Origin: a virus
Length of the DNA stretch: 64,000 bases
Reading direction: 5' to 3' (one strand)
Virus record (IMG/VR): IMGVR_UViG_3300042988_001339
Span: 1 to 64,000 of that record
Shown here: piece by piece, positions 32,298 through 43,576 of the stretch
Numbering within the stretch: position 1 is the stretch's first letter
Layout of the letters: each line of letters opens with the position of its first letter
Made by a program: the position numbers and the translations under genes
The notes under the pieces: generated by a model
Database searches by the model: none
What the model was told of the DNA's origin: nothing
What the model saw: only the letters and a program-made list of their open reading frames with translations

Positions 32298-35200
32298 TTA
32301 GATGTCGAGGCAGGCGACGGCGGCGGCGTAGTCGCCGTCTCCGGCTAGTGCGTTCGCGGCCTCCGCGATGTGTGACGCGTGGGCCTGGAATCCGAAGGGG
32401 CGCCAGGGCCTGTCGCCTTTCCGGACGCGGCGGACGAACATGCGGAACGCCGTGGATTCGGCGGCCTTCGCGGTGTCGTCTGCCCCGAGCGCCTGCAACA
32501 CGACGTCGAGGCTGGCCGCGAGCTCTGCTCGGACGGCGGGGTTCCCCCGGAGGTCGGCGGGTGCCCACCACGCGAGGGCCTCGGTGACGTCCCCGTCGGG
32601 GTCGTCTGGGTTGGTGACCCACCGGTCGCCGCGGATGTTGACGGCGTCCTCGTCGGGGACCTGGAGGACAACACCGACGTACCCGCCGGACTGCCAGCCT
32701 CCGGTGACGTCCCCGGGTGGGACGTGCATGCCGGTCTCTTCGGCCCATTCGCGGCGGGCCGTTTCCTCCGGGGTTTCGACGCCGTCCACGCACCCGCCGG
32801 GGAGTTCCCACGTGCCGGATGCGGGGTCGCCGTCGGTGAGGGCCCGCTGGAGCATGAGGACCCGCCCGGTGGATCGGGCTTGGATGGCGAGGCCGGCGGC
32901 GACTACGGGGGCCGGGCCGGTCTCGTCTTCGGGTTGTGCGGCCTTGGCGGTGCGGGGGGCGGGGACCTTGACGGGTTCCTGTTCCCTGTCCGTGGGCTCG
33001 TCGTCCTCGGTGTCGCCCTGGTCGGTGTCGGGGTCGTCGTCGGGCGTATTGCCCGCCGGGGCGGTGAGTGCCGCCTGTGCCGCTGCGGCGGTCGTGAGGA
33101 CGGTGTTCGCGCGGTCCGCGATCCCCGCCAACGGGATGACCGTGTTCCCCGCGTACAGGAGCGGCATGTCCGCTTCGGGGACGTCGAAGCGGGGCAACCC
33201 CGCCTCGTCGCGGCCCTCGTTGATGGTTTTCCGTCCGGTCCGCACGCGCTCCGACTCGGCGGCCTCATCGTCCTCGTCATCATCGAAGACGAACGAGAAC
33301 TCCAAGGTCTCGGGCATCCCCAGGTACTCGGCGCTGATGGCGTTGATGATGCCAGCCATCCACTTCGCTGTGGGTTTGGTGGCGCGGCGTTCGTTGCGGC
33401 GTTCGTCGCCTTCGTCGAAGCCGGCGCCGCCGAGTCCTCCGGATGGGGGGAATCCGAGTTCTTGTGCGGTGATGTCGAAGTGGTTCCCGATCATGCGGAT
33501 CAGGAACAGGTCATAGTCGGGCTTGTACCGGGACTCCAGTGACGGCAGGAGGGTCGGGACGAACCCTGCGGGGAGCATTTTCGCCCGGTGCCGTTCCGCG
33601 ATGTTCCCCGACAGCATGTCGTTGAACACGGTCTCGTACGCCCGCAACTGGTCGGGCGTCATGTTCGCATTCACGTTGATCAACAGTTCGGGGGCTACCC
33701 CGTCGTCGTACTCCGAGTTCATCCACGCGCGCCGCTTCAGGTACAGGTCGGCGTCCTGGATGGCCTGCTCCGTGGGGCCGTACCCGTAGGGGGTGTGGGT
33801 GCGGCGGTTCCGGGGCCGGTAGATGAGGCTGTCCGCGGTGTACTCGCCGTCCGCCTGGTTCGACGCGGTGAACTCGCCGCGGGGGAACCCGTGAAGGATC
33901 TGCTGGTAGGCGGGCCCCTCCTGCGGCGTGGACCCGGTGTGGTCAAGCAGCGGCTTGATGGTGTTACCGCACCACGCCGGACGCCCGTTGCGGCGGACGT
34001 ACAGGACCTCATTGGGCACGCTGACGCAGTACACGTCCCCCTCGTAGGGGACGGTCGTCATCGACGTGATCTTGTTGCTGCGTGCGCGCCGAAGCGAGAT
34101 GTCGTAGCGGTCCCGCTTGAGCGATCCCGCCCTGCGGTGCACGCCCGCGGAGAACCCGAGCTTGACCGCTATCTCCTGGACGGCGCCCGCAATCATGGGG
34201 CTCGTCGTGGTGATGTAGCGCGCCTTCGGGTCCCCGTGCCCGACCCAGCCGTCACCCAGCCAGTAGAAGTGCAGGAAGATCTCCAACTGGCGGGCCGACA
34301 TGTTGAGGATCTCGGACGGGACGGACTTCTCCCACGACTTCCCGAACCGCGCCACATACTCGGCCAGGGTGCGACTGTAGACGAGGAACCCGCGACCGGA
34401 CTCAGCCGCAGGTCGCCCCAAGATCCGTGCCAGCAAATCCTTGAACTCCTGGTAGCCCTTGGACTTGGACTCCTGTGAGATGACGACCGTCGAGTCGTAC
34501 TTTCCGTGGGATCCGCGCTTGTCGACGTGCCCCTCCGCAAGGTACATGCCCATGAAGGCGGCGAAGTCGTCGCCGGACATGCGGAAGTCGCTCGACCGCT
34601 TGCCGGCGGCCGGGATGACGAACTCGTCGAGGTCGGGGGCGTCCCATGACGCGACCACGGGGATGCGGGGGGTGTCGCCACAGGCGAGGGCAAGGGCTTC
34701 GGCGGGGATGATGACTTCACCGCGACCCCGGCTTGCGTGGCCGCCCAGCACCCGCGGGAGGGACTCCACGAGCATCCGGTGGTTTGGCGTCACCAGCAGG
34801 TCGATCGCCCGGGACGTGAAGTGGTACATCGGGCCGTCGTGGCGGGCCTTGTGGAAGTAGGTGGCCTGCTGCCATTCGAAGGCGTGGGTCTTCTGGTTGC
34901 GGGTGGCGAACTCGTCGTCCGTCGTGGTGTCGGCAAACTTCACCCAGCCGCGGCGGGTGAGAACCTCGGTGTCGTCGGAGTAGCACGACCCGTCCAGGAT
35001 CGTCAGGGAGTGGAGGTCCCCACCCAACGTCGCCCGCGGGAAGATGCTGAGCGCGTCAAGGACCAGCGCCTCCTCCATCGCGGCACCCAGCCAGTCCTCC
35101 ATCGTCCAGCCCTGGATCTGGTCAGGGTGCTTCCACCACCGCTTGAGGTTGGTGATCTGCTCGGCGTTGTCCCTGCGGAACGACCGCTCCCACGCCGCGC

Positions 35201-35789
35201 GGGACGCGGGCATCGCGGCCCTCTGGTCGGCCTTCGCGTCCCGGTCCCCGGACATGGCTGCGCGGGCCCGGGACGCCTCGACAGCAGTCCCGGCGGCCCC
35301 CGCCATCGCGGACTCAAACGCACTCTCGGATGCGACGAAGTCCCAGCCGAGTTGGGTGAGCTGGCCCTTGCGGATCTCGATGCACTTCCTGATGATCCCC
35401 ACACCGTCAGCCAACTGCCGCAGGACGGTCCAGGGCATGACCCGGTCCCCGCCCCCCGGCAGGTTGTGCGACACCGCGTACTCGGAGCGGCGGGGCAGCG
35501 GGCGGCCGTCCGCGCCGAGGGGGTCGATCGCTGCGGGCCGCAGCGGGCGGCCCGGCCCGAACGGGACGAGGGGGTCCGTCCAGCCACCCGGGACGAGCGG
35601 CGCGGCCTGCCCGGCACCCCACCCGGGGGACTGCTGGAGCCCGGCCTGTGTCGCCTGCGGCACGAGGTCAGTGACCGTCGCCCCGCGCGGGGCCTGGATC
35701 ATCTTGAGGAGTTCGGCGGCGATGGCCTGCGCCGACGGGCCCTGCGGCTGCACGGGCTGGGGGCGGGGAGAGCGGCGCTTCCGCGACAA
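32298..35789 (-). CDS. portal protein containing an intein and a C-terminal Nudix domain
   Basis: 1163 aa as translated. The portal parts are residues 1-268 and 610-~900 (VGIIRKCIEIRKGQLTQLGW; YGYGPTEQAIQDADLYLKR; FLIRMIGNHFDITAQELGF), typical of the dodecameric DNA gate. An intein interrupts at Ser268/Cys269 and ends at Asn609/Thr610. After an acidic linker (~905-955), residues ~961-1101 form a Nudix hydrolase with a complete box: Gly999, Glu1005, Arg1013-Glu1014, Glu1017-Glu1018 and Gly1020. Mature extein would be 822 aa. Such a portal-Nudix fusion is uncommon; substrate unknown. Confidence 0.88.
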   Translation of the reverse strand: MSRKRRSPRPQPVQPQGPSAQAIAAELLKMIQAPRGATVTDLVPQATQAGLQQSPGWGAGQAAPLVPGGWTDPLVPFGPGRPLRPAAIDPLGADGRPLPRRSEYAVSHNLPGGGDRVMPWTVLRQLADGVGIIRKCIEIRKGQLTQLGWDFVASESAFESAMAGAAGTAVEASRARAAMSGDRDAKADQRAAMPASRAAWERSFRRDNAEQITNLKRWWKHPDQIQGWTMEDWLGAAMEEALVLDALSIFPRATLGGDLHSLTILDGSCYSDDTEVLTRRGWVKFADTTTDDEFATRNQKTHAFEWQQATYFHKARHDGPMYHFTSRAIDLLVTPNHRMLVESLPRVLGGHASRGRGEVIIPAEALALACGDTPRIPVVASWDAPDLDEFVIPAAGKRSSDFRMSGDDFAAFMGMYLAEGHVDKRGSHGKYDSTVVISQESKSKGYQEFKDLLARILGRPAAESGRGFLVYSRTLAEYVARFGKSWEKSVPSEILNMSARQLEIFLHFYWLGDGWVGHGDPKARYITTTSPMIAGAVQEIAVKLGFSAGVHRRAGSLKRDRYDISLRRARSNKITSMTTVPYEGDVYCVSVPNEVLYVRRNGRPAWCGNTIKPLLDHTGSTPQEGPAYQQILHGFPRGEFTASNQADGEYTADSLIYRPRNRRTHTPYGYGPTEQAIQDADLYLKRRAWMNSEYDDGVAPELLINVNANMTPDQLRAYETVFNDMLSGNIAERHRAKMLPAGFVPTLLPSLESRYKPDYDLFLIRMIGNHFDITAQELGFPPSGGLGGAGFDEGDERRNERRATKPTAKWMAGIINAISAEYLGMPETLEFSFVFDDDEDDEAAESERVRTGRKTINEGRDEAGLPRFDVPEADMPLLYAGNTVIPLAGIADRANTVLTTAAAAQAALTAPAGNTPDDDPDTDQGDTEDDEPTDREQEPVKVPAPRTAKAAQPEDETGPAPVVAAGLAIQARSTGRVLMLQRALTDGDPASGTWELPGGCVDGVETPEETARREWAEETGMHVPPGDVTGGWQSGGYVGVVLQVPDEDAVNIRGDRWVTNPDDPDGDVTEALAWWAPADLRGNPAVRAELAASLDVVLQALGADDTAKAAESTAFRMFVRRVRKGDRPWRPFGFQAHASHIAEAANALAGDGDYAAAVACLDI
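33963..34985 (-). other. intein in portal gene (LAGLIDADG type)
   Basis: 341 residues, 269-609 of the precursor. Block A starts at Cys269 (CYSDDTEVLTRRGW), block B has VTPNHRML, the endonuclease core shows two LAGLIDADG-like helices (FMGMYLAEGHVD; FYWLGDGWVGHG), and the C-terminus has DVYCVSVPNEVLYVRRN, then WCGN with Asn609 and +1 Thr610. The penultimate residue is Gly rather than the common His. The frame is continuous, so splicing would restore the portal. Confidence 0.9.
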
Positions 35790-35831: not shown

Positions 35832-38800
35832 TCAGCGTCCGGGGAGGATGAGGCCAGCGATGGTGACTGTCCCGTCGGGGGCGGTCGTGATGGGCCCGGG
35901 CACGTCCGGGGCGTCCGGGGTGTCCGGGGTGTCGCCGGGGTCGTTGGGGATCGGGATGGATCCCGGGACTCCGGGTGGCCCGTCGGGGCGGAGTTCCACC
36001 GGCAACGCCGCGGGCCCTGTGGGTGCCGCGTGCGGGAGTTCCTTCCCGCACCGGAAGCACGTGGCGCGGCCGGTCGTGTTCGGGGTCTTGCACTCCGGAC
36101 ACGGCGCACTGAGCTGGGTGAGGAACGCGAGAGCGGACGCGCCACCCGCCAACTCCGTCACCGCCCACACGAACGCATCGAGACGGTCCGGGGACCACCC
36201 GGAGGTCGGGTTCCACGTGCACAACTGGTCCTCAAGCTCAGACCAGCGGCCGACATGCCGGACCATCTTCCGCTGCGTGAGGACCGCGATCGGTTCCGCC
36301 CGGACCGCCTTCCCCCGCGACGCGCGGACGACGGTGACAGGCAGGTTCGGGTGCGCGGCCTTGATGGTCGCCTCGACCATCTCGCCACCGAAGTTGATTT
36401 CGGCGCAGATAGCGTCCGCGGTGTGCTTCTCGTACGCGGCGTACACGCGGTCCGCCCACTCGGTGGGTGACCACGAACCCGAGAGGTCTTCGAGGACGTA
36501 GAACCGGCCGTCGGACCCGAGCCCGACGACGACGATCCCGCACTCGCTCTTGCCGTTCGTGGATGACCCGGACGGGTCGACACCGACAACGACACGGACT
36601 AGGCGAACGTCCGGGGGGACACTGCCGACCCGCTGTGCATCGATGACGTCCTGGGACCACAAGGCGCCGGGGATGGCGTCCATGGCGTCCCAGTCGCCGT
36701 CGAGGAGCGCCCGGCGGAGGCGGGAGTCGGGCATCGCTCGTAGCTGCGCGACGTACCCGGGGTTGGACTTCATCAGCCCCGGGTTGTCCTCGATGGTCGC
36801 GGGGAGGAACGCCCGTTTTGGGTGCCAGCCGATGACCTTCCCGTCCTCCACGACGGGCGGTGACCACGGGACGCCCGCGTCCGGTGGCGCTTGGCCCTTG
36901 GCGAGGTCTTCGGGGCGGGGGGACACGAACCGGCGTTTCACCCACCGGAACCCGACGCCCTCAGGGTTCGACGCGGAGATGACGTGCGCCCGGTGCCCCC
37001 GCGCGGACCGGACCCGGCTGAGCATGAACGTGTACTGCGACTCCGTGAACTCGGTGAGCTCGTCGAACAGGAGCAGGTCGAACTCGGCCGACTTGTAGTT
37101 CTGCTCATCGCCCGGGCTGTTGTCGCTGCCCGCGTTCTGGAGGCTGATGAACCGGATCACGGAGGCGTTGGGGAACGTGAACGTGAAGTCGGTCTTGTTT
37201 TCGCGTGCGTGCCCGGCGAGCATCCCGGGGAGGTGCAGGCCGTGGGTCTGCTTCAGCATCGGCAGGGTGCGGCGGACGAGCGCGATGTGCGCGCCGGGGT
37301 GCGCGACCGCGAAGTCACAGGCGTAGGACCGGAGGAAGAACGAGTTGTGGGTGACGATGTAGTCGTCGGTCACGTACAGGTGGTTCAGGTTGTCGACCGT
37401 GATGCACCGTGAGTTGTCGACCACGGTAGGGACGACGGACACGACGCGATGCCAGGGCTCGTGGTCGCCGCCGTTGAACCCCGCGACCGCCCGTGCCCGC
37501 TTCCGGGGCATGTGGAACAGGTCCACGGTGGCGCGGCCCTGGATGTAGAGCCGGTACGCGAGGCGGCCGGCGCGCTTCTCCCCCCCATGGGTGTACGTGG
37601 TGGTCTTGGTGTTCAGGGTCGCCCGGTAGCCGAGGGACCGGAGGATGGCCTGCATGTCCTTCGCGAGGCGCTCGGACACGGTGACGAACTCGACGTGGCC
37701 GCGGTCGTCGATGTGCCCGTCGGTGTCCATGAGGCCCTGGACGAACGCGAGCCGGTCGGGGGTGGGTGCGCGCATGATGCGCCCGGGGATGAACTTCTCC
37801 CACGAGTGGAGCCCGTACAGGCCGTCCCGCTTGAGGAGCGTCGCCGCGGACTCGCCGGTCCGCTTCGGGTAGGCCGCGACGAGTTCGCCGCCCGCGTTGA
37901 GGGCGTCATCGAGTCGCTGTGCGGTGGCGGGTCGGGGCCAGACGGTGCCTCGTTCGATGGTTCCGATCGTCCCTTGCGGGGAGCCGATGAGTGCGCCTAG
38001 TTCACGTTGCCCAAGGTTGCGCGCCTTCCGCCACCTCTTCATGGTTGCCGTGAATTCGGCGAGGGCGTCCCGGTCGTCGCGGTCAGCGCCAGGGCGGGTG
38101 ATGCTGTAGGTAGGGCAGTGCGCCCCGTTGTCGGTGCCCGTGACCTGCCGCAACTCCAAGCCGTGGGGTAGTTCGGCGCGGATCCGGTCGAAGATCTCCG
38201 GGTCTACCCCGCAGATCGACACGTTGACGGAGATGCTGCCGTCGCCGACGAGCGCGCCGAGCGTGTAGGGGCTGAACGTCGCCCACTGCGTTCCGACCCC
38301 AGTCATGGTGACGGGGTTCGTGAGCGGCAACTGCACGTAGTGAGGGCGGAGGCCGCGGGCCTTCTCGTCGTCGGCTCGGGCGACGAGCCGTGCGAGCTCG
38401 ACGGTGTTGACGACCTTCGCGCGGGACTGGACCCGCAGGTTCCATTCATCCTCGGGGCGTAGGCCCTTGGGGATGGCTGGCGGGTCAATCTTCCGGCGCT
38501 TCCGTTGGCCCGCGATCGATACGGCCCAGAGGTGCTCGTCGTCGGCCTCGACGGTGGACCCGTCGGCGAGAGTGACCCGGTAGAACTGCTTCGGGCCATT
38601 GTCGGTGACCTTGATGACGGTGGCGGTGGTCCCGTCGGGGTTGCAGACGGTGTCGCCGACCTTGATGTCACCGAACAGGGTCCAGCCCTTGGGGGTGAGG
38701 ATCTTCGTTTCTTGGTCGGGCGTGTACCCGGGCGCGGTGCGGTCCGGGGTCCGGCCGCCTTTGCCGGGGCCGGCGCTTCCCCCGAACAGCAACTCGAAGA

Positions 38801-38918
38801 CTTCGCCCGCGAGTTTCACGGCCTGCGCCTGCTTGGGGTGCGGGGTCCAGAACTTCACGGGCTTCGGGTTGAACACGTCCAGAGCGTGAGCGAAGACATT
38901 TGTTTGGGGGCTCTGCAC
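35832..38918 (-). CDS. terL: large terminase with class-3-type intein
   Basis: 1028 aa as translated. Extein residues 1-53 end in GGSAGPGK, half of the Walker A loop. The intein fills 54-525 and Ser526 completes the loop. After splicing (556 aa) the ATPase has LLLFDELTEF (Walker B) and VISASNPEG. The C-terminal nuclease begins with the RNase-H-like GVDPSGSST and has DRLDAFVWA near its end. A zinc ribbon (CPECK...CFRCGK) and Pro-rich tail follow. TerL cuts and packages DNA through the portal encoded next. GTG start at 38918 lies about 15 bp from a -10 element, suggesting a leaderless message. Confidence 0.92.
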   Translation of the reverse strand: MQSPQTNVFAHALDVFNPKPVKFWTPHPKQAQAVKLAGEVFELLFGGSAGPGKGGRTPDRTAPGYTPDQETKILTPKGWTLFGDIKVGDTVCNPDGTTATVIKVTDNGPKQFYRVTLADGSTVEADDEHLWAVSIAGQRKRRKIDPPAIPKGLRPEDEWNLRVQSRAKVVNTVELARLVARADDEKARGLRPHYVQLPLTNPVTMTGVGTQWATFSPYTLGALVGDGSISVNVSICGVDPEIFDRIRAELPHGLELRQVTGTDNGAHCPTYSITRPGADRDDRDALAEFTATMKRWRKARNLGQRELGALIGSPQGTIGTIERGTVWPRPATAQRLDDALNAGGELVAAYPKRTGESAATLLKRDGLYGLHSWEKFIPGRIMRAPTPDRLAFVQGLMDTDGHIDDRGHVEFVTVSERLAKDMQAILRSLGYRATLNTKTTTYTHGGEKRAGRLAYRLYIQGRATVDLFHMPRKRARAVAGFNGGDHEPWHRVVSVVPTVVDNSRCITVDNLNHLYVTDDYIVTHNSFFLRSYACDFAVAHPGAHIALVRRTLPMLKQTHGLHLPGMLAGHARENKTDFTFTFPNASVIRFISLQNAGSDNSPGDEQNYKSAEFDLLLFDELTEFTESQYTFMLSRVRSARGHRAHVISASNPEGVGFRWVKRRFVSPRPEDLAKGQAPPDAGVPWSPPVVEDGKVIGWHPKRAFLPATIEDNPGLMKSNPGYVAQLRAMPDSRLRRALLDGDWDAMDAIPGALWSQDVIDAQRVGSVPPDVRLVRVVVGVDPSGSSTNGKSECGIVVVGLGSDGRFYVLEDLSGSWSPTEWADRVYAAYEKHTADAICAEINFGGEMVEATIKAAHPNLPVTVVRASRGKAVRAEPIAVLTQRKMVRHVGRWSELEDQLCTWNPTSGWSPDRLDAFVWAVTELAGGASALAFLTQLSAPCPECKTPNTTGRATCFRCGKELPHAAPTGPAALPVELRPDGPPGVPGSIPIPNDPGDTPDTPDAPDVPGPITTAPDGTVTIAGLILPGR
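37344..38759 (-). other. class-3-type intein with internal HTH in terminase P-loop
   Basis: About 472 residues (54-525). There is no N-terminal Cys or Ser: the first residue after Lys53 is Gly. It has the WCT set of class 3 inteins: Trp131 in DDEHLWAV, Cys505 in SRCITVDN and Thr523 in IVTHN. LAGLIDADG helices occur at ~217-228 (YTLGALVGDGSI) and ~390-404 (AFVQGLMDTDGHID). Between them, ~288-350, lies an XRE-like HTH (RWRKARNLGQRELGALIGSP). Start boundary inferred from the Walker A consensus. Confidence 0.85.
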
Positions 38919-39576: not shown

Positions 39577-40500
39577 TTATGACGCTGAGGCGAGCAGTGC
39601 GGCGACGGTGTTCGAGGCCTGGGCGTGGAGCTCGACACCAAGCCTGTCGTAGGACATGGTCGTGCGGCTGCTGGCGTGGTCCATGCCGTCTTGGACGACG
39701 CGGAGGTCTACGCCCGCCTGGAGCGCGAGCGTCGCGAAGGACCGGCGGAGGGAGTGCGGGCTGACCTTTTTCGTGATCCCTGCGTCGCGGCAGAGACGCT
39801 GGAGCGCCCGGTCTGCCGACCGGCGGGTCATCTGGGTGCCGTCGCGGCGGGTGATGAGCCAGCCCGTGGCGCGCCCGGCGGTGACCGCGTCCACGGCCTG
39901 CATCACGGGGATGGGGAGCACCTTGACGGACGGTTTATTGCCCTTCCCGACGGTGCGGAGGACCCGGTAGCCGAGTTCAGTGGTCGAGAGGTCCTCGATG
40001 CGGATGGCGCACGTGGCGGAGACCCGCATCCCGACGGTGCCCATCAGGGAGATGAGTGCCCAGTCCGACGGGGACGATGCCCGGGCGGCCCGCAGCAGCG
40101 ACCCGAGTTCGAAGCGGTTGAGCCATGTCCTCCGGGACGGATCGTCGTGGATCTCCGGGAGGACCAGGTGGTGTGCGGGCGAGTGCTCGATGAAGCCGTC
40201 GACCACGGCGAGGTCGTAGTAGCCGCTGATGGTGCCCATCCTGCGGACGACGGACGCGGGGGCGTTCTTCCGGTGCTCGACGAGGTGCACGACGAACGCC
40301 TGGATGTGGCCCCGCTTCATCGTGAACGGGTGGAGGCCCCTGGACGCGCACCACTCGAAGAACAGGCGGAGGTCGAGTTGGTAGGCGGCGCGGGTGTTCG
40401 CGTTGAGGAACCGGCCGAGGAACGCCATCGCCGCGAGGTTCGCGGGGTCGTTGAGGGCGTCGTGGGTTTGGGCGGCGGGCAGGAGGGTAGCGTCGTACAT
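39577..40500 (-). CDS. tyrosine recombinase (second integrase)
   Basis: 307 aa from ATG 40500 with CTGGAG upstream. N-terminal core-binding domain (~25-120) and catalytic domain with Arg159 (GMRVSA), Lys186 (GKGNK), His249-x-x-Arg252 (HSLRRS), His275 (MDHASSRTT) and Tyr284 (SYDR): all catalytic residues present. Only distantly similar to the integrase at 10474. Unusually it lies inside the late module between tail fibre and terminase. It could resolve genome multimers, invert a segment, or be the mark of a second inserted element. Confidence 0.9.
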   Translation of the reverse strand: MYDATLLPAAQTHDALNDPANLAAMAFLGRFLNANTRAAYQLDLRLFFEWCASRGLHPFTMKRGHIQAFVVHLVEHRKNAPASVVRRMGTISGYYDLAVVDGFIEHSPAHHLVLPEIHDDPSRRTWLNRFELGSLLRAARASSPSDWALISLMGTVGMRVSATCAIRIEDLSTTELGYRVLRTVGKGNKPSVKVLPIPVMQAVDAVTAGRATGWLITRRDGTQMTRRSADRALQRLCRDAGITKKVSPHSLRRSFATLALQAGVDLRVVQDGMDHASSRTTMSYDRLGVELHAQASNTVAALLASAS

Positions 40501-40532
40501 GTCGGGCTCCAGGTTGCTCTGGGGTTCCGGCT

Positions 40533-40564
40533 GGCCCGGCCAGCGCTGACACGCTGGTCGGGCC
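40533..40564 (-). terminator. hairpin between tail fibre and recombinase
   Basis: A 13-bp stem with one G-T pair (40533-40545 with 40552-40564) and a 6-nt loop, 79 bp after the tail-fibre stop. Confidence 0.65.
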
Positions 40565-40642
40565 TTCCTGTTGTCGCCGGATCGGACGCGCTGGGCGCGC
40601 GTCCGGTTCCAAGTAGCCGTGAATATGGGTCGCAGCGAGCCC

Positions 40643-43576
40643 TTACGGGTTGGTGTTCGTGACCGTCGTCGTGATGGTGGCGCCGGTGAGGTCCTGTTGC
40701 GCCGTGATGGCACCCACCGTGTCGTTGCCGTCGTACACCAGGCGCGTGACGGTGCCGCCGGTGAGCTGGAGCCCGTGGGACATGCCCGCCGATCCACCCC
40801 TGTTGTCCCAGAGGATGTTGCCCCGCACGTACATCGCGGCGGCTGACGCGCCGGACACGATCGCGGGGCGCGGCGTTGCGGGCGCGCCGCAGTTACGGAC
40901 CCTATTGCCCTCGATGATGATCCGGTCCCAGGTGCCGTCCGCCACCCAAACCCCCCGGGCCGTCCCCTGCGCGTCAAGGCATGAGTTGCCGTCCACCACG
41001 AGAGTCCCGAGGGTGCCGCCCGTGACGGTGGTCACCCTGATACCGGCCGTCCCTGCGAGCCTGATGTCATTCCCGCGGATCGTGAGGTCCCCGGCGTTGG
41101 TGATGCTCGTGATCCCTTCGGCCTGACCGTCGCAAATTACGACATTGTCCAGCACCTGCGCGGAAATCGAGTAGAGCCCCGCCACGAATCCACCGCCGAT
41201 GTAGATCCCCGTGGATCCAGGCCATCCCCCTACGACAGTGTTGCCCTGGATGATCGTCCCGTCGCACGCTCGGTCGGAGATGCCGAAGCCGCAATCCTCG
41301 ACGTGGTTTCCGATGATTCGCGCACCCCGCGAGCGAATGTTGCCGGACTGCGATTCAGTGAAGATTCCATTCTTTCCGCACCACCGGACCACGTTCCCGA
41401 TGATCGTGAATGCTTCGTGGTGGAAGAATCCAGTTCCGATGCCGAAGCCAGACCCGCCAGCCGTGCCACCGAGTTCGGGGACCTGCGCCCCGCCCCGCTC
41501 GATGACATTCCCCACCATGTAGCCATCGGGCAAGAAATCGCACCCGAACGCAGTGGCGCTCGTGTCGTGGATGTACATGTTGGCGCAGGTCAGGCGCACA
41601 CAGTTGGTGATGTAGATGCCCTTGTTTACACTGCTGTAGGTCGCGACGCGGGACCCAGAGCCATCAATCTCGAAGTCGCGGAACGTCACATCAGTGATCG
41701 TCCCGCTGTTCTGCGTGCCGCCCTCATAGCGCCACGCCGACCCGCCGACCCCGCAGTAAGAGACGATAGAGCGACCAGCGCCGTACCCCCACCAGGTCGT
41801 CCGCGAGAGCACGGGCAGTTCGCCGGTGACCATGTAACTGCCAGGCTCGATCTCAATCGAGCCGCGAACGCTCGCGGCAGCCGTGAATGCCGCCGTGTCG
41901 TCAGTGCCCACGCCGACCCACGCCCCAGGAATCGCCACGGTCCTGCCCGAAACCGTTGCGCGCGACGCCCCAAGCACGGTTGCCGCCGTGGCGCTCTGAA
42001 TCGCGACGATCCACGTGACCATGTCGGCTCTCTGCGCGTTCGCGCGGATTCGTCCCGCGCCCGGGATGACGATCCGCTTGCCGATGTCGGCGGAAGTCCA
42101 GTTGGCGGTAGCACTGTTGAGCGTGCTGCTGTTGTTGTTGATCGCGCCGTCGGTGATGGTGCGGCCAGCCGTGACGCTCTTGGTCGGCGCAGACGCGAGC
42201 GTGGCCTGCGTCGCGGACACCACGGCGGCGATCGTCGTCAGGTGCGTGCGCCCGACGGTCAGAGTGCCGTTGTCCGCTCCCGCGTAGGGGATCGCCACGG
42301 TCTTTCCAACGTCGCCCGCCGTGAATGCGGCCGTGGGGGATGTGAGGGTGGTCGACGCGGCGGTCACGGTCGCGTCGGTGACCACTCGCATGTCACCGAC
42401 GGCGCCGAAGACTCGCTTCACGCCGTTGCTCGACGCTGACAGGGTGCCCCAGCCGAGCGCGAGCGGACTCACTGTCGTGACGACAGGGACCTGTCCGACC
42501 GTGGGGGTGCCGACCGGGCGAGGCGCCGCGAAGGCGGTCGTGGCGATGCTCGTGTCATTGTCGCCCGCGCTCGGCGTGGGAGCCGTCGGATTGCCCGTCA
42601 GGGCCGGGCTCGCCAGGGGCGCATACGTGCCAGTCAGTGAAGGGCTCGGGGTGTCCGTGGAGGTGATGACCCACGCCGAGACACCGTCACTGGTGAGCTC
42701 CACCGACTCCCCCGCGAGGGTCAACGCCCGGGACGTCTGCCCGACCGCCGTCCCCGTGATGGTGTCGCCCCCGGCCCGTGACACGGTGACCACGTTCGCT
42801 GAACCGTCGATCTTCTTGACGCCCGTCACCGTCCCCGCCGCGACCGAGTTCGCCGCCGGCAACGTCCGGGCGATCGCCGCGGACGTCGCGTCCACCAGGG
42901 CCATCTGGCCCGCGACGAGTGTCCCCGTCGTCGCGGTCGACGGGGCACCCAGTGCCGCCGTCACGGCGGTCAACGCGGGCGCGCCCAGCGCCGCCCGGGC
43001 GGTCGCGGCGTCCGTGCCGCCGGTGCCGCCCCGGGCCAGGGGCAGGGTGCCCGACGTGATGTCGGCCGCCGAGTGCGCGTGCACCGTCCCAGCCTTGGCC
43101 GCGAGTGCGGCGGTCGTCGAGGCGGACAGGGCCGTCACGTCCGCGTCGAGAGCCACCTCGATGGTGGTCGTCCCGTCGGAGATCGTGCCGTCGGCATCGA
43201 TCGTGATGGACGAGCCGCCACCGCCGGTCGCGTCGGCCTGCCACGTCGCCGCCGTCGGGGACGTCGCCTTCAGGACCAGCCCCGCGGAGGCGGTGCCGGT
43301 GACCGTGACGCCACCGACAGCGGCGGTGTCCGCCGCGGTCCCCGACGTCGCGAGCTTCCCCGCGACGGTCGTGTCCAGCGCAGCCAGACGCGCCGCGACA
43401 GACGCGGCGGACCCCTGAGGGGTCAGGCCGAGAGTGTCCTCGATCTGGTTGATGGCGGTCTCGACGGCGTTCGCTGCCGCCGCGCTGATCCGCGCGGTGC
43501 TCGGGGCGTCCGCGGGAGCACCAGTCCAGTCGGTGCGGTTCGCGGGGAGGTTCGACAGATCGTCGGGGTATGCCAC
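40643..43576 (-). CDS. tail fibre/spike with right-handed beta-helix
   Basis: 977 aa from ATG 43576. The N-terminus (MAYPDDLSNLPANRTDWTGA, VETAINQIEDTLGL) is the standard attachment end of actinophage fibres, followed by Ala/Thr-rich shaft repeats. From ~510 to the end the sequence has pectate-lyase-like coils (GIYITNCVRLTCANMYIHDT, FTIIGNVVRWCGKNGIFTES, TIRGNDIRLAGTAGIRVTTV). Such a beta-helix usually cleaves or binds surface polysaccharide. Base composition from ~41.2 to 42.3 kb is noticeably less GC-rich than the neighbours, suggesting an exchanged host-range domain. Confidence 0.85.
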   Translation of the reverse strand: MAYPDDLSNLPANRTDWTGAPADAPSTARISAAAANAVETAINQIEDTLGLTPQGSAASVAARLAALDTTVAGKLATSGTAADTAAVGGVTVTGTASAGLVLKATSPTAATWQADATGGGGSSITIDADGTISDGTTTIEVALDADVTALSASTTAALAAKAGTVHAHSAADITSGTLPLARGGTGGTDAATARAALGAPALTAVTAALGAPSTATTGTLVAGQMALVDATSAAIARTLPAANSVAAGTVTGVKKIDGSANVVTVSRAGGDTITGTAVGQTSRALTLAGESVELTSDGVSAWVITSTDTPSPSLTGTYAPLASPALTGNPTAPTPSAGDNDTSIATTAFAAPRPVGTPTVGQVPVVTTVSPLALGWGTLSASSNGVKRVFGAVGDMRVVTDATVTAASTTLTSPTAAFTAGDVGKTVAIPYAGADNGTLTVGRTHLTTIAAVVSATQATLASAPTKSVTAGRTITDGAINNNSSTLNSATANWTSADIGKRIVIPGAGRIRANAQRADMVTWIVAIQSATAATVLGASRATVSGRTVAIPGAWVGVGTDDTAAFTAAASVRGSIEIEPGSYMVTGELPVLSRTTWWGYGAGRSIVSYCGVGGSAWRYEGGTQNSGTITDVTFRDFEIDGSGSRVATYSSVNKGIYITNCVRLTCANMYIHDTSATAFGCDFLPDGYMVGNVIERGGAQVPELGGTAGGSGFGIGTGFFHHEAFTIIGNVVRWCGKNGIFTESQSGNIRSRGARIIGNHVEDCGFGISDRACDGTIIQGNTVVGGWPGSTGIYIGGGFVAGLYSISAQVLDNVVICDGQAEGITSITNAGDLTIRGNDIRLAGTAGIRVTTVTGGTLGTLVVDGNSCLDAQGTARGVWVADGTWDRIIIEGNRVRNCGAPATPRPAIVSGASAAAMYVRGNILWDNRGGSAGMSHGLQLTGGTVTRLVYDGNDTVGAITAQQDLTGATITTTVTNTNP

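What the first reader, a model, noticed from the sequence alone, without database searches (positions are those of the whole stretch)
37344..38759. Class-3-type intein inside the terminase Walker A loop, with an HTH inside its endonuclease
The intein splits GGSAGPGK from S, so the ATPase is inactive until splicing. It lacks the N-terminal Cys/Ser and has the Trp131, Cys505, Thr523 set of class 3 inteins. An XRE-like HTH (about residues 288-350) lies between the two LAGLIDADG helices, which could extend homing-site recognition or give transcriptional control. Class 3 inteins are rare and mostly known from phage genes.
Basis: partly seen in the sequence, partly recalled or inferred. Interest (0 to 1): 0.75.

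Follow-up and report, generated by a model that had tools for sequence, protein, structure and literature searches.

The report
Class 3 terminase intein with HTH
A self-removing protein element sits inside the ATP-binding loop of a phage's DNA-packaging motor and carries a homing DNA-cutting enzyme with an extra DNA-gripping module; every part is a known kind, but the placement of the module and an extra conserved loop near the element's start look new, and natural relatives with and without the module make its role testable.

Summary
ORF 35832..38918(-), 1028 aa, is a Terminase_6-type large terminase; 37344..38759 encodes a 472-aa intein between Lys53 and Ser526 of the Walker A loop. An intein-free relative (L090, 82% identical terminase) reads GGSAGPGK|SFFLRS, fixing both boundaries. 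W131, C505, T523, H129, HN and S+1 are present and residue 1 is Gly: class 3 by sequence. An XRE-type HTH (Pfam E 1e-9) lies between two LAGLIDADG helices that keep their acidic residues. New here: the HTH sits between the LAGLIDADG repeats (in TliVMA it follows the endonuclease); it is modular, present in 9 of 10 close members, absent in L010 and L019, and the whole endonuclease is gone in mini-intein L066; and the family has a conserved ~12-residue loop in block A, with a Cys at position 4 that is Thr here. Best reading: an active homing class 3 intein whose HTH tunes DNA recognition; transcriptional control is unlikely. A second, class 1-type intein sits in the neighbouring portal gene.

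The parts
35832..38918 (-). Intein-containing large terminase gene (GTG start), 1028 aa, Terminase_6N/6C, with a C-terminal zinc-ribbon-like stretch (weak match)
38760..38918 (-). N-extein, residues 1-53, ending in the Walker A half GGSAGPGK (38760-38783)
37344..38759 (-). Class 3-type intein, 472 aa (ORF residues 54-525)
   Evidence: empty site in L090
38712..38750 (-). Family-specific loop in block A (intein residues 4-16, TPDRTAPGYTPDQ; CPDRxAPSY... in relatives)
   Evidence: absent in ordinary class 3 inteins; residue blocks pLDDT 92-94; kept in mini-intein L066
38526..38534 (-). Block B H129-L-W131 (His B10, Trp B12 of the WCT triplet)
38238..38270 (-). LAGLIDADG helix 1 (block C, PYTLGALVGDG, Asp173 of the intein)
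37872..38057 (-). XRE/Cro-C1-type HTH between the two LAGLIDADG helices (intein 235-296, ORF 288-349)
   Evidence: C.AhdI, C.BclI folds, TMt about 0.8
37716..37748 (-). LAGLIDADG helix 2 (block E, AFVQGLMDTDG, Asp347 of the intein)
37404..37406 (-). Cys505, block F position 4, predicted class 3 branch-point nucleophile
37344..37352 (-). Block G T523-H524-N525; followed by Ser+1 at 37341-37343
35832..37343 (-). C-extein, residues 526-1028 and stop, starting with Ser+1

Best explanation
A mobile class 3 intein occupies the Walker A loop of the phage's large terminase. Cys505 (block F) is predicted to attack the Lys53-Gly54 bond with help from His129, Thr523 and Trp131; the N-extein then passes to Ser526, Asn525 cyclises, and the intact GGSAGPGKS P-loop is restored, so packaging ATPase activity needs splicing. 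The embedded two-motif LAGLIDADG endonuclease is predicted to cut intein-free terminase alleles at the P-loop codons and so copy the intein. The XRE-type HTH, inserted in the linker between the two LAGLIDADG repeats, is a separable accessory DNA-contacting module that tunes affinity or specificity of homing. Shown here by sequence: boundaries, signature residues, intact reading frame and motifs, empty alleles, modular presence and absence of the HTH, sequence constraint. Inferred: splicing, cleavage, and the role of the HTH.
For: Signature residues conserved. Best solved-structure matches of the splicing half are class 3 DnaB inteins 6bs8, 6rix, 6riy. Empty site in L090, also in L091 and L092. 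Both LAGLIDADG acidic residues kept in all 10 members. AlphaFold2 mean pLDDT 88.9, pTM 0.84; Foldseek to PI-SceI, TliVMA and I-DmoI, and to XRE regulators C.AhdI and C.BclI. HTH found in 9 of 10 close members, absent in L010 and in the more distant L019 with the endonuclease otherwise intact. HTH pairwise dN/dS 0.13-0.59, so still constrained though it diverges fastest (mean identity 43% against 72% for the second LAGLIDADG half). The same gap between repeats holds a NUMOD1-like DNA-binding module in L050 (E 1.8e-4). Accessory-domain precedent: TliVMA (PMC8966425).
Against: No splicing, cleavage or DNA-binding data. Gly at position 1 could matter: an A1G change abolished trans-splicing of the AceL NrdHF class 3 intein (PMC7891396). 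HTH-less relatives occupy the same site, so the HTH is not required for homing there. Flanking DNA of intein-bearing alleles agrees mainly at the P-loop codons, leaving little evident conserved sequence for an HTH to read.
Confidence: 0.8

Rival explanations
1. The HTH is a passenger or decaying insertion without a role in homing.
For: It is the fastest-changing part (mean identity 43%), is cleanly missing in L010 and absent in L019; its GC3 in the window (0.75) is lower than in the rest of the intein (0.90-0.98).
Against: The HTH fold is still recognised in 9 of 9 carriers, in frame, with dN/dS below 1 in all pairs tested (synonymous sites near saturation, so approximate).
Confidence: 0.17
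2. The HTH makes the excised intein a transcriptional regulator of phage genes.
For: XRE/Cro-C1 family is typical of phage repressors; Foldseek finds C.AhdI and C.BclI.
Against: No own gene or domain outside the endonuclease; absent from intact relatives; the carrier is a packaging gene. No operator was searched for.
Confidence: 0.05
3. It is a class 1 intein starting at position 4 (Thr here, Cys in relatives), with GGR belonging to the extein.
For: Cys at position 4 in the 11 relatives with the loop.
Against: Intein-free terminases read GK|S with no GGR (L090, L091, L092, L093); GGR or AGR follows Lys in quite different terminases; the WCT triplet is complete.
Confidence: 0.03
4. The intein is decayed and does not splice, leaving the terminase inactive.
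For: A class 3 pseudogene intein is known (PMC3196547), and a decayed relative exists in Kutzneria (L017).
Against: All catalytic residues intact and one open frame through both exteins.
Confidence: 0.05

Closest known systems
Class 3 DnaB inteins (Mycobacterium smegmatis 6bs8, M. chimaera MchDnaB1 6rix)
   Same: HINT fold, WCT triplet, His B10, no N-terminal nucleophile; best sequence and fold matches of the splicing half
   Different: Those solved structures are short splicing domains without endonuclease; no loop in block A
TliVMA and PI-TkoII inteins with HTH-like accessory domains (PMC8966425)
   Same: HINT plus LAGLIDADG endonuclease plus HTH-like domain; TliVMA also sits at a P-loop
   Different: Archaeal; TliVMA has the class 1 Cys1; its accessory domain lies between endonuclease and C-terminal HINT, here the HTH lies between the two LAGLIDADG repeats
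Mycobacteriophage TerL1-a intein (PMC5050341)
   Same: Inserted after the invariant Lys of the terminase P-loop
   Different: Terminase_1 family; the paper names TerL1-c and -e, not -a, in its class 3 comparison, and its only TerL6 site is the C-motif. Here: class 3, Terminase_6-type, P-loop
PIN-PhoH class 3 inteins with NUMOD1-like module (L020, L050)
   Same: Class 3 signature; DNA-binding module in the gap between LAGLIDADG repeats
   Different: NUMOD1-like, not XRE; different host protein and site

Membership tests
Class 3 intein | No Cys/Ser/Thr at intein position 1 | tested here: met
   Gly1; boundary fixed by empty site L090
Class 3 intein | Trp at block B12 | tested here: met
   W78 of the intein, invariant in 10
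Class 3 intein | Cys at block F4 | tested here: met
   C452, invariant in 42
Class 3 intein | Thr at block G5 | tested here: met
   T470, invariant in 42
Class 3 intein | Groups with class 3 and apart from class 1 inteins | tested here: inconclusive
   Best matches are class 3 DnaB inteins; no tree with class 1 inteins was made
Class 3 intein | Branched intermediate on the F4 Cys | not testable with these tools
   Needs C505A splicing assay
LAGLIDADG homing endonuclease intein | Two LAGLIDADG motifs with acidic residues | tested here: met
   D173 and D347, invariant in 10
LAGLIDADG homing endonuclease intein | Intein-free alleles at the same site | tested here: met
   L090, L091, L092
LAGLIDADG homing endonuclease intein | Cuts the intein-free site | not testable with these tools
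   Needs a cleavage assay
HTH accessory domain of TliVMA type | HTH fold | tested here: met
   Pfam HTH_31 and HTH_3; Foldseek
HTH accessory domain of TliVMA type | Located between endonuclease and C-terminal HINT | tested here: not met
   Located between the two LAGLIDADG helices; TliVMA position
Mycobacteriophage TerL1-a intein | Inserted between P-loop Lys and Ser/Thr | tested here: met
   K53|G54 and N525|S526
Mycobacteriophage TerL1-a intein | Terminase_1 host protein | tested here: not met
   Terminase_6N and 6C

The most novel reading that the evidence does not exclude
The conserved block A loop (GGRCPDRxAPSY) is a regulated splicing element: its Cys4 could pair with the catalytic Cys or the conserved Cys39 and hold splicing, and so packaging, until a redox or assembly cue; this phage (Thr4) has lost the lock. 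Independently, changing or losing the inter-repeat HTH may let the same endonuclease move between quite different terminases.
Probability: 0.1. Interest if true: 0.65.

Novelty: new variant of a known kind. Interest (0 to 1): 0.45.

Why it matters
The family is a natural deletion series at one site: intein with HTH, without HTH, and without any endonuclease, plus empty alleles. That makes the unsettled role of accessory DNA-binding domains in intein homing endonucleases directly testable, and it adds an insertion point (between LAGLIDADG repeats) and an apparently unrecorded block A loop to class 3 inteins.

Tried and rejected
Class 1 boundary at position 4: rejected by the intein-free alleles. 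HTH as a general class 3 feature: not supported; in the 42-sequence alignment HTH_31 matches 8 members at E 0.01, no more than the 9 known carriers (the table does not name the members). Family in cultured phages: none of 314 matching phage records reached 60% identity. Family in sequenced Actinomycetota: of 397 genomes only the centre genome (S. turgidiscabies) matched the start of the block A loop; the other 39 align only from about model position 9-20. Rfam and tRNA scans of the window: nothing. The second structure job and third fold search were not used. Tori and Perler 2011 was not held. Tree support inside the family is low (35-100%, mostly under 85), so that L010 lost the HTH, rather than others gaining it, rests on its nested position only. 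The position of PI-TkoII domain IV relative to the LAGLIDADG repeats was not checked.

Full report
What is there. The - strand ORF 35832..38918 (1028 aa, GTG start) matches Terminase_6N and Terminase_6C. Between Lys53 and Ser526 it holds 472 residues (37344..38759) with intein blocks A, B, F and G and a LAGLIDADG endonuclease. The window lies in a virus record of 67,284 bases; portal, head, tape-measure and integrase genes surround it, so it is a phage or prophage, probably actinobacterial by composition and by the hosts of its relatives (inference; L010/L016 is in Streptomyces turgidiscabies Car8).

Boundary. A viral contig (L090) whose terminase aligns at 82% identity lacks the intein and reads FELMFGGSAGPGK|SFFLRSYAADF; L091 (64%) and L092 (61%) read GGGK|S. 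The window's exteins join to exactly this. The junction DNA of window and L090 is 35/45 and 32/45 identical on the two sides.

Class. Residue 1 is Gly. His76, Trp78, Cys452, Thr470, His471 and Asn472 (ORF 129, 131, 505, 523, 524, 525) occupy B10, B12, F4, G5, G6, G7. All are invariant in the ten close members, and all but Trp are invariant in 42 class 3 relatives, Trp being at 90% or more. The nearest solved structures of the splicing half are class 3 DnaB inteins. A formal tree against class 1 inteins was not made.

Endonuclease and HTH. Two LAGLIDADG helices (PYTLGALVGDG, AFVQGLMDTDG) keep their acidic residues. Between them, residues 235-296 of the intein match HTH_31 at 1.1e-9 and HTH_3 at 7e-8. 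The AlphaFold2 model of the intein with ten flanking residues each side has mean pLDDT 88.9 and pTM 0.84; Foldseek gives PI-SceI, TliVMA and I-DmoI for the body and the XRE controllers C.AhdI and C.BclI for the HTH. Pfam finds HTH_31 in 9 of 10 members of the close family, the window included, the exception being L010, which has a clean deletion (395 aa); the more distant member L019 (395 aa) also lacks it; L066 is a 159-aa mini-intein with no endonuclease in a different terminase. HTH sequence changes fastest (mean pairwise identity 43%, against 72% for the second LAGLIDADG half), but dN/dS stays below 1 (0.13-0.59; synonymous sites near saturation, so approximate). In PIN-PhoH class 3 inteins a NUMOD1-like module lies in the same gap (L050, E 1.8e-4, just under the curated cut-off).

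Block A loop. Ordinary class 3 inteins start K|AQPLxxKILTP; this family starts K|GGRCPDRxAPSYxxxxETKVLTP, about 12 residues longer. The loop is kept in the mini-intein, so it belongs to the splicing domain, and the model gives its residue blocks pLDDT 92-94. The L037 group (K|AGRASK...SYNSS...) has a longer insertion at the same place and branches next to the family (98% support). The Cys at position 4 is Thr in the window. Its role is unknown.

Known or new. P-loop terminase inteins (PMC5050341), class 3 inteins with LAGLIDADG endonucleases (82.5% of 1701; PMC7891396) and HTH-like accessory domains (TliVMA, PI-TkoII; PMC8966425) are all described. In TliVMA the accessory domain lies between endonuclease and C-terminal HINT and its presence added a second cleavage site. 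An HTH between the LAGLIDADG repeats of a class 3 intein, and the block A loop, were not found in the papers searched (open-licence library only, so absence there is weak evidence).

Mechanism. Splicing and homing are inferred from conserved residues and empty alleles. The HTH most likely contacts DNA beside the P-loop target and tunes recognition; because HTH-less relatives use the same site, it is an accessory, not a requirement.

Noticed in passing
33963..34985 (-), in ORF 32298..35789: A second intein, 341 aa, in the portal gene: starts Cys (CYSDDTEVL), ends WCGN|T, LAGLIDADG_3 match, no HTH; class 1 by sequence with Gly in place of the penultimate His. L090 has the empty site (LTILDGS|TIKALLDH), so it lacks both inteins.
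   Followed up: partly
ORF 32298..35789 (-), residues 963-1082: NUDIX hydrolase domain fused to the C-terminus of the portal protein (Pfam 8e-15); a NUDIX-like stretch seems to follow the portal region in the same frame of L092.
   Followed up: no
ORF 35832..38918 (-), residues 939-962: CPxC...CxxC zinc-ribbon-like stretch near the terminase C-terminus (weak Pfam match), also in L090 and L091.
   Followed up: no
37872..38057 (-): GC3 of the HTH stretch is 0.75 against 0.90-0.98 in the rest of the intein, hinting at a different origin.
   Followed up: partly
L017 6383..6715 and upstream: Decayed remnant of the same intein family in Kutzneria buriramensis: broken frame, and the block F Cys is gone.
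   Followed up: no
39577..40977 (-): Integrase gene (PHROG 1; tyrosine type by sequence) two ORFs upstream of the terminase, suggesting a temperate phage.
   Followed up: no
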